Source of the DNA: Actinomycetota bacterium
GTDB lineage: Bacteria > Actinomycetota > Thermoleophilia > Solirubrobacterales > Solirubrobacteraceae
NCBI GenBank assembly: GCA_005884115.1
Contig: VAXW01000003.1
Coordinates: 248,001 to 312,000 of the forward strand
Reading direction: 5' to 3'
DNA: 64,000 nucleotides
Part shown: positions 42,476 to 44,917 of the stretch, piece after piece
Position numbering within the stretch: the stretch's first letter is position 1
Layout of the letters: the number at the start of each line of letters is the position of its first letter
The notes under the pieces: model-generated
The model's database searches: none
Seen by the model: the letters and a program-made list of their open reading frames with translations, nothing else
Told to the model about the DNA's origin: nothing
Position numbers and translations under genes: made by a program

Positions 42476-42678
42476 GTCCCAGCCCCCGGCGGCTCGCTTG
42501 GTCGGGCCGCACCGGCCGCCGGCGCCTGCGCCCGCAGGCCACGGCGCACGGTCCGCCGGCCAATCGCGGCGAGGCCGTGCTCGCGCGTGATGAAGGCCGC
42601 TTCCGCCGATCGTCCGCAGGTGTCCAGCGTCTGCTGCGTCGTTCAACTCTTGCGCGCAAGTTGCCGAAAAGGGGAGCA

Positions 42679-43431
42679 ATGACGCAACTCTCGCGCCCCT
42701 TTCAGATTGCTCTGGCGGCGGCGGGGCTGTTCTTGGCCGTGTGGTTCGTGGCTCTGCGCGGACACTCATCGAGCTCCGAAAGCTCCCCACCGGCCGCCTC
42801 GACGCCTGCCGCATCCTCCTCGAGTGGCGGCTCGAAAGCTGGCGGGGCGGGCTCCGTCTACCACGGCTCGGCGCCCGGCGTGGAAGGTCTGACGCACGAC
42901 ATCGCAAAGGCGCGCGGCGCCGTCGCCGCCTCAGAACGCAACGCAAAGCAGCTCGAGGAAAAGTCGGCCCAAGCGGCAGGCTCGAGCGAAACCGGCGGCA
43001 CCTCCGCCTCAGCTTCAGCGTCGGCAGGCGCCCGTCACGCGCCGGCAGCGACGCGCGCGCGCTCGCACAAGAGCAGCGGCGCAGCGGCGCCTCGCCACTC
43101 GCGAGCCGTCGGCGTCCAGCACATGCAGCGCACCGTCGAAAGAGAGCTCAGGCGCGGCAAACTCGTCGCCATCCTCCTGTGGAACCCCGCCGGGACGGTC
43201 GACGAGCGGGTCCAGGACGAGCTCGAGCTGGTGGCGCGCAAGTTCAAAGGCAGGCTCGCCGTGCACAGCGCGGTGCCCAAGCAGGTGGGGGCGTTCGGGT
43301 CGTTCACGCGCGCGATCCAGGTGTACTCGACGCCGACCATCCTGATCGTCAACAGGCACGGGCAGACCAGCACGGTCCCCGGTCTCACCGACGCCTTCTC
43401 GCTCAGGCAGGCGATCCAAGAAGCCTCCTAG
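42679..43431 (+). CDS. Membrane-anchored thioredoxin-fold protein with Ser/Ala-rich linker
   Basis: N-terminal TM, low-complexity linker, C-terminal VAILLWNPAGTVDERV...YSTPTILIVNRHGQ. Confidence 0.65.
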   Translation: MTQLSRPFQIALAAAGLFLAVWFVALRGHSSSSESSPPAASTPAASSSSGGSKAGGAGSVYHGSAPGVEGLTHDIAKARGAVAASERNAKQLEEKSAQAAGSSETGGTSASASASAGARHAPAATRARSHKSSGAAAPRHSRAVGVQHMQRTVERELRRGKLVAILLWNPAGTVDERVQDELELVARKFKGRLAVHSAVPKQVGAFGSFTRAIQVYSTPTILIVNRHGQTSTVPGLTDAFSLRQAIQEAS

Positions 43432-43465: not shown

Positions 43466-44917
43466 GTGAGCACGACCGGCGAGCGCCTCGAGCAGCACCT
43501 GCACCACCCGCACGGTCGCGGGCACATGCCGGACGGCGCGTGCACCGGTGCCGCAGGCGGTGCTGCGTGTGGCGATCTGGTGCGGATCTCGATCGCGCTC
43601 GGGGAGAGCGATGCCACCGGGGGCATCCGCGACGCTGGATTCGATGCGCGCGGCTGCGGTGCCGTTCTTGCAGCCGGGAGCGCCGCGGTCTCCCTGTTGC
43701 GCGGGGCCCCGCTGCTCGACGCCGCGCGGATCGGCGCTGACGAGATCGAGCGCGAGCTGGGCGGACTGTCCGTCGCCAAGCGCCACGCGGCCGAGCTCAC
43801 GGCCGACGCCCTGCACCGCGCGCTCGGCCTGGCCGCACGCACCCACGCCCGGCTTGCACCCGCTCCTGGACGCACGCTCGTGGCGATGAGCGGCGGCGTC
43901 GACAGCGCGGTGGCCGCGCTGCTCGCGTCCAAGCAGCGCGGCCAGAGCGCCGCGGTGACGCTGGAGCTGTGGTCCGATCCGGAGAACGACGGCGAGCTCA
44001 GCTGCTGCTCGGCGCAGGCCGTTCGCAGCGCGCGCAAGGTCGCCCACGGGCTCGGCCTGCCGCACCTCTCGATCGACCTGCGCGAGGAGTTCCGCGCGGG
44101 GGTCGTCGAGCCCTGGCTCGCCGGGCGCGCCGCCGGCGAGACGCCGAACCCGTGCGTGCGCTGCAACGGCAGTGTGCGCCTCGACGCGATGCTCGAGCTC
44201 GCCGCGCGGCTCGGCGCGAGCACGCTCACGACTGGCCACTATGCACGCGTGCAGCCCGACGGGCTGCTCCGTCTCGCCGTCGACGAGGGCAAGGACCAGA
44301 GCTATGTGCTGGCCGCGCTCGCGCCGGCCACGCTCGCGCGCCTTCGCTTTCCGCTCGGCGGCCTGCACAAGTCGCAGGTGCGCGAGATCGCAGAGCGTGC
44401 GGGTCTTTCGGTCGCCCACCGCAAGGACTCGCAGGACCTGTGCTTCCTCGCCGGCACGCGCCAGAGCGCCTTCCTTGAGCGGCACGGCGGCCTGCGACCG
44501 CGACGCGGCCCGATCGTCGACCGCGAGGGAAGGGTTCTGGGGGAGCACCAGGGCGCTCACACCTTCACCGTCGGCCAGCGCCGCGGCATCGGCATCGGTG
44601 GGCCCGGTCCCCTGTACGTGCTCGAGACCGACGCTCAGGCCAACTCCGTGATAGTCGGCCCGGGCAGCGCGCTGCTCTCGCGGCATGTCGACGTCCGTGA
44701 GCTCGTACTTCACCGCGACGGCCGACGCGTCGACGGGCTGCGCGTGCGCTCGCACGGGCGCCGCCTCGGCGCGCGCCTCGAGCAGGATCTCGCTCCCGGT
44801 CGTCACCCCCGCGCTCGAATTGAGCTGACGGAGGCCAGCGCGCGCGCCGCCTCGGGGCAGCTCGCGTGCCTGTATGCCGGAGATGTGCTCGTCGGCCACG
44901 GCACGATCACCGCGTAG
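43466..44917 (+). CDS. mnmA: IscU/NifU-like scaffold domain fused to tRNA 2-thiouridylase MnmA
   Basis: N-term ACGDLVRISIAL...FDARGCGAVLAAGSAAVSLL (IscU-like); C-term SGGVDSAVAALLASK, NPCVRCNG, DSQDLCFLAG, GQRRGIGIGG. Confidence 0.88.
   Translation: MSTTGERLEQHLHHPHGRGHMPDGACTGAAGGAACGDLVRISIALGESDATGGIRDAGFDARGCGAVLAAGSAAVSLLRGAPLLDAARIGADEIERELGGLSVAKRHAAELTADALHRALGLAARTHARLAPAPGRTLVAMSGGVDSAVAALLASKQRGQSAAVTLELWSDPENDGELSCCSAQAVRSARKVAHGLGLPHLSIDLREEFRAGVVEPWLAGRAAGETPNPCVRCNGSVRLDAMLELAARLGASTLTTGHYARVQPDGLLRLAVDEGKDQSYVLAALAPATLARLRFPLGGLHKSQVREIAERAGLSVAHRKDSQDLCFLAGTRQSAFLERHGGLRPRRGPIVDREGRVLGEHQGAHTFTVGQRRGIGIGGPGPLYVLETDAQANSVIVGPGSALLSRHVDVRELVLHRDGRRVDGLRVRSHGRRLGARLEQDLAPGRHPRARIELTEASARAASGQLACLYAGDVLVGHGTITA

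What the first reader, a model, noticed from the sequence alone, without database searches (positions are those of the whole stretch)
43466..44917. IscU/NifU-like scaffold fused to MnmA, with the third scaffold cysteine missing
The N-terminal ~115 aa carry the first two IscU cysteine motifs (AACGDLV and FDARGCGAVLAAGSA). The position of the third (normally KLHCSxLA) reads KRHAAEL. The MnmA part is intact (SGGVDS, NPCVRCN, DSQDLCFL) and has CxxC...C rather than the DxxC...C of E. coli MnmA. IscU assembles and transfers Fe-S clusters, and cluster dependence of CxxC-type thiolases is discussed for related tRNA enzymes. The fusion suggests in-cis cluster or persulfide delivery to the thiouridylase.
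Basis: partly seen in the sequence, partly recalled or inferred. Interest (0 to 1): 0.7.

Follow-up and report, generated by a model that had tools for sequence, protein, structure and literature searches.

The report
NifU-like sulfur relay fused to MnmA
In a whole class of soil actinobacteria the enzyme that puts sulfur on tRNA carries a built-in, altered iron-sulfur scaffold domain, and the alteration suggests that it hands over sulfur atoms rather than building iron-sulfur clusters.

Summary
ORF 43466-44917 (+) encodes a NifU/IscU-fold domain (residues ~6-121) joined in frame to a complete CC-CxxC-C type MnmA. It is family-wide: 77 of 80 named loci from Solirubrobacterales and relatives carry it, including cultured Conexibacter, Patulibacter and Solirubrobacter.

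The missing third cysteine is a rule. Of 159 distinct fused domains, none keeps both His105 and Cys106 (E. coli IscU numbering). 131 keep C37-D39-C63-H105 and lack C106; 12 keep C106 and lack H105. Cys37 (Cys35 here) is the domain's most conserved column. Unfused neighbours of mnmA mostly keep all five.

C-D-C-H is the resting metal site of free human ISCU2; the lost cysteine is ISCU2's persulfide acceptor. In SufU the acceptor is the Cys35 equivalent.

In 32 of 33 genomes of the order SufS is the only cysteine desulfurase type found; sampled SufS sequences have the zinc-swapping His of SufU partners. TusA is mostly absent.

Most likely the domain is an in-cis persulfide relay (SufS to Cys35 to MnmA), not a cluster scaffold. 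Acceptance at Cys35 is inferred. One family with a cysteine-free remnant and no IscS found argues against strict need.

The parts
43466..44917 (+). whole fusion ORF, 483 aa, GTG start, TAG stop
   Evidence: same junction in 77 of 80 loci
43481..43828 (+). NifU/IscU-fold domain, residues 6-121
   Evidence: PF01592 E 6e-20; IscU fold
43568..43570 (+). Cys35 (IscU Cys37, SufU CGD cysteine): most conserved column of the domain; proposed persulfide acceptor
43574..43576 (+). Asp37 (IscU Asp39), metal-site residue
43655..43657 (+). Cys64 (IscU Cys63), metal-site residue
43784..43789 (+). His107-Ala108 at IscU His105-Cys106: His kept, persulfide-acceptor Cys of IscU replaced by Ala
43871..44914 (+). 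MnmA part, residues 136-483
   Evidence: NF001138 325 bits over cut-off 284
44003..44008 (+). Cys180-Cys181, CC motif of C-type MnmA
   Evidence: invariant in 70 fusions
44153..44164 (+). Cys230-x-x-Cys233, NPCVRCN, catalytic CxxC
   Evidence: invariant in 70 fusions
44441..44443 (+). Cys326 (E. coli MnmA Cys199 position), proposed final sulfur carrier or cluster ligand
   Evidence: invariant in 70 fusions

Best explanation
The N-terminal domain is a sulfur-transfer module dedicated to MnmA. It descends from the NifU/IscU scaffold of an iscS-nifU-mnmA operon but is no longer a full cluster scaffold. Proposed mechanism: (1) Cys35, Asp37, Cys64 and His107 hold one metal ion, probably zinc (residue set shown, metal inferred). 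(2) The domain docks on a cysteine desulfurase, in this organism SufS (SufS as the only type found is shown, docking is inferred). (3) As in SufU, the SufS histidine takes the place of Cys35 on the metal, and Cys35 swings out and accepts the persulfide (inferred). (4) Cys35-SSH hands the sulfur in cis to the MnmA site Cys230/Cys233/Cys326, either as a Cys326 persulfide or onto its [4Fe-4S] cluster (inferred), and MnmA puts it on U34 of tRNA.
For: Cys35 is the best-kept column of the domain (0.99) and stays in all 15 fused domains that lost the metal site. None of 159 fused domains has the complete IscU site, while 143 keep a four-ligand set, C-D-C plus either His105 or Cys106. In free human ISCU2 the metal ligands are exactly the kept C-D-C-H, and the lost Cys is the sole persulfide acceptor (PMC11021402). 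In M. tuberculosis SufU the acceptor is the CGD cysteine, freed by a SufS histidine (PMC10216065). SufS here and in sampled relatives has that histidine. No IscS-type desulfurase found in 32 of 33 genomes of the order and TusA absent in 16 of 18. Unfused NifU next to mnmA with iscS upstream in f6 and f27 gives the ancestral arrangement.
Against: Family f7 has a cysteine-free remnant and no IscS was found there, so some relatives manage without it. One fused domain (L329) lacks the first Cys. f21 has the same C-D-C-H state with iscS next door, so the state is not a mark of SufS use. Free SufU is also present and could serve MnmA in trans. The sequence resembles IscU more than SufU. No distance between Cys35 and Cys326 could be measured. 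Own genome is 88% complete.
Confidence: 0.5

Rival explanations
1. In-cis cluster delivery: the domain binds iron or a labile [2Fe-2S] cluster at C-D-C-H and builds or repairs the [4Fe-4S] cluster of the CxxC...C MnmA site.
For: IscU fold. C-D-C-H binds ferrous iron in free ISCU2. The MnmA part is of the C-type, and T. thermophilus C-type MnmA has a [4Fe-4S] cluster and is oxygen-sensitive (PMC8584467).
Against: The cysteine needed for persulfide uptake in cluster assembly is lost in every C-D-C-H fusion. Fusions with Cys35 alone cannot hold a cluster. Ordinary C-type MnmA elsewhere in the phylum has no such domain.
Confidence: 0.17
2. Docking platform: the domain recruits a cysteine desulfurase and its metal pulls out the desulfurase cysteine loop, so that the loop delivers sulfur straight to MnmA; Cys35 is only a metal ligand.
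For: In the human complex the metal on ISCU2 positions the NFS1 cysteine loop and Cys381 of NFS1 replaces Cys69 of ISCU2 on the metal (PMC11021402). The ISCU2 acceptor is missing here. B. subtilis YrvO gives sulfur to MnmA directly (PMC11784392).
Against: Cys35 is kept where the rest of the metal site is gone (f9), which a pure metal role does not explain.
Confidence: 0.2
3. Relic or structural extension: after fusion the domain serves folding or tRNA binding and its chemistry is fading.
For: Family f7 keeps a shortened cysteine-free remnant; f9 and part of f8 have lost most of the site.
Against: C-D-C-H is invariant in all 51 fusions of families f1-f5 in the class sample and present in 131 of 159 over the phylum; Cys35 is the best-kept column.
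Confidence: 0.13

Closest known systems
IscU / NifU N-domain scaffold (PF01592, TIGR01999, TIGR03419)
   Same: Fold, first helix, CGD and GCG motifs, kept His105; about 30% identity to solved IscU
   Different: Lacks Cys106, fused to MnmA, below all NifU/IscU equivalog cut-offs
SufU zinc sulfurtransferase (TIGR01994)
   Same: Four-ligand site with the CGD cysteine, a SufS partner with the zinc-swapping His in the genome
   Different: Ligand is His105 instead of the third Cys; lacks the SufU insertion; sequence closer to IscU; acceptance not tested
C-type MnmA (CC-CxxC-C), as in Thermus thermophilus
   Same: All five cysteines of the type, complete MnmA domains
   Different: Carries the NifU-like domain at its N-terminus
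E. coli IscS-TusA-TusBCD-TusE-MnmA relay
   Same: Carries sulfur from a desulfurase to MnmA
   Different: Relay proteins not required here: TusA mostly absent, IscS not found in most of the order
B. subtilis YrvO-MnmA pair
   Same: A private sulfur source for MnmA without the Tus relay
   Different: Here no desulfurase gene is adjacent; a fused acceptor domain is present instead

Membership tests
MnmA (tRNA 2-thiouridine synthase) | Equivalog model over cut-off | tested here: met
   NF001138 and TIGR00420 over cut-off
MnmA (tRNA 2-thiouridine synthase) | PP-loop SGGVDS and catalytic cysteine pair | tested here: met
   SGGVDS, Cys230/Cys233/Cys326 invariant in 70 fusions
C-type MnmA | CC-CxxC-C cysteine pattern | tested here: met
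   Cys180-181, 230, 233, 326; class definition from PMC11784392
C-type MnmA | [4Fe-4S] cluster bound and needed | not testable with these tools
   needs anaerobic spectroscopy and assay
IscU/NifU scaffold | IscU fold | tested here: met
   Foldseek and PDB sequence search
IscU/NifU scaffold | Complete five-residue site C37, D39, C63, H105, C106 | tested here: not met
   C106 is Ala108 here; 0 of 159 fused domains complete
IscU/NifU scaffold | Equivalog cut-off (TIGR01999, TIGR03419, TIGR02000) | tested here: not met
   49-58 bits against cut-offs of 188-273
SufU | Equivalog cut-off TIGR01994 | tested here: not met
   22 bits against 92.5
SufU | CGD cysteine plus Asp and second Cys as metal ligands | tested here: met
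   Cys35, Asp37, Cys64
SufU | Third Cys as fourth zinc ligand | tested here: not met
   Ala108; His107 may take its place
SufU | Partner SufS with zinc-swapping His | tested here: met
   HPHD motif in own SufS and sampled relatives
SufU | Accepts persulfide from SufS | not testable with these tools
   needs an in vitro transpersulfuration assay

The most novel reading that the evidence does not exclude
A third kind of sulfur supply to MnmA, besides the Tus relay and direct desulfurase transfer: a former Fe-S scaffold turned into an in-cis, metal-gated persulfide carrier that lets a SUF-type desulfurase feed tRNA thiolation in bacteria without IscS or Tus proteins.
Probability: 0.42. Interest if true: 0.75.

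Novelty: new variant of a known kind. Interest (0 to 1): 0.6.

Why it matters
Whether MnmA works by persulfide or by a [4Fe-4S] cluster is openly disputed (PMC11784392). A natural fusion that keeps the metal site of a scaffold but drops its persulfide cysteine separates the two ideas in one molecule, with ready-made natural variants (C-D-C-H, C-D-C-C, Cys35 only, cysteine-free). It also suggests how bacteria without IscS or Tus proteins may feed tRNA thiolation from SufS, and shows an Fe-S scaffold apparently repurposed for RNA modification.

Tried and rejected
Chance or frame artefact: rejected, 77 of 80 loci have the same junction, including a complete genome and cultured strains. Misplaced start: rejected, the first helix is conserved. 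One-off loss of the third cysteine: rejected. 'The fusion causes the cysteine loss': rejected for f21, where abutting unfused genes show the same loss. 'The H-A state occurs only in SufS-only genomes': rejected, f21 has iscS directly upstream. 'Every lineage without IscS needs the cysteines': rejected by f7. Two of the desulfurase queries were antisense frames and their columns were ignored. Literature searches for a NifU/TrmU/MnmA fusion found no description; the Shigi 2020 paper on C-type MnmA is not held, so an earlier mention there cannot be excluded.

Full report
THE OBJECT. The ORF at 43466-44917 (+) is real and reads as one 483-residue protein. Residues 10-120 match NifU_N and 137-481 a complete MnmA. 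The AlphaFold2 model of the whole protein has mean pLDDT 92.6 and pTM 0.90. Foldseek aligns its parts to MnmA structures (2hma, 2det) and to IscU (4eb5_C); the N-domain modelled alone gives IscU again, with SufU further down. The gene lies between hisS plus a small ORF without Pfam match and alaS-ruvX, with no desulfurase gene next to it.

FAMILY-WIDE. In a sample of 149 genomes of the class, the window's order (families f1-f4) and families f5, f8 and f9 carry the fusion. A scan of named genomes gives Solirubrobacterales and relatives, among them cultured Conexibacter arvalis, Patulibacter, Solirubrobacter and the complete genome of Paraconexibacter antarcticus; 77 of 80 loci show the fused frame. 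Families f10 and f7, which first looked unfused, have an N-terminal extension that resembles the domain: f10 keeps C, D, C and the third Cys, with an IscS-like gene directly upstream of MnmA; f7 has a shortened, cysteine-free remnant. Family f6 has unfused iscS-nifU-mnmA with all five site residues. Outside the class, f21, f53, f71 and f14 have fusions and f27 has the unfused operon. In f21, fused and abutting unfused genes occur side by side. A tree of the MnmA part groups these lineages apart from ordinary actinobacterial MnmA and needs several changes between fused and unfused.

THE ACTIVE SITE. I mapped the five IscU assembly residues (E. coli C37, D39, C63, H105, C106) on 259 distinct domains. 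Fused, 159: CDCH without C106, 131; CDC with C106 but without H105, 12; C37 only, 9; C37 and C63 only, 6; D39, C63 and C106 only, 1; complete CDCHC, 0. Unfused but next to mnmA, 15: complete 11, CDCH 4. So a fused domain keeps a four-ligand set with either H105 or C106, or loses part or most of the site. C37 (Cys35 here) is the most conserved column of the domain, 0.99, and is kept in all 15 fused domains that lost the metal site. The states run by clade, so they stand for a few independent events, not 159. In the MnmA part, cysteines 180, 181, 230, 233 and 326 are invariant in 70 fusions.

WHAT THE RESIDUES MEAN. In free human ISCU2 the metal is held by exactly Cys69, Asp71, Cys95 and His137, and Cys138 is the specific persulfide acceptor; no other cysteine is persulfidated in C138S (PMC11021402). 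The fusion keeps the equivalents of the first four and lacks the fifth. In M. tuberculosis SufU the acceptor is Cys40 of the CGD motif, set free when SufS His354 replaces it on zinc (PMC10216065). The SufS of this genome and of sampled relatives carries that histidine in an HPHD-type motif.

SULFUR SOURCES. In the own genome the only full cysteine desulfurase found is SufS, next to a SufU; the assembly is 88% complete. In 32 of 33 genomes of the order no IscS-type enzyme was found; the exception is G107. TusA is absent in 16 of 18 genomes of the order, including the own. Against a simple rule: f21 has the same C-D-C-H state with iscS directly upstream, some f5 genomes have an IscS-like gene, and in f7 no IscS was found and the remnant has no cysteines.

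READING. The evidence favours a scaffold repurposed as a private sulfur carrier of MnmA. Shown: fusion, fold, site residues, their distribution, SufS background. Inferred: metal identity, docking on SufS, acceptance at Cys35, transfer to Cys326 or to the cluster. Cluster delivery, a pure docking role and a fading structural role are the rivals. The persulfide-versus-cluster dispute for MnmA is open (PMC11784392; PMC8584467), and this fusion is a good place to test it.

NOVELTY. Both parts are known families; the fused architecture with a consistently incomplete scaffold site was not found described in the library, which does not hold all papers. It is best filed as a new variant of a known kind.

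Noticed in passing
window 42577-43431 (+): ORF just upstream of the fusion: probable membrane-anchored protein with a thioredoxin-like C-terminal half but no CxxC (LFWNPKG-type motif), no Pfam match; a relative lies in 32 of the 80 related loci.
   Followed up: partly
L110-L123 (family f7): MnmA with a shortened cysteine-free remnant of the NifU-like domain that is still conserved in sequence; its role is unexplained.
   Followed up: partly
L168 with L391; L171 with L390 (family f5): IscS-like gene followed directly by a TusA gene in two f5 genomes that also carry the fusion.
   Followed up: no
L265, L266, L259: Records titled Bifidobacterium breve and Chlamydiae bacterium carry the fusion with Solirubrobacterales-like sequence; probably mislabelled or mis-binned metagenome contigs.
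   Followed up: no
L326, L327, L328 (family f21): nifU and mnmA as separate abutting genes while close relatives have them fused: recent fusion or fission within one family.
   Followed up: partly
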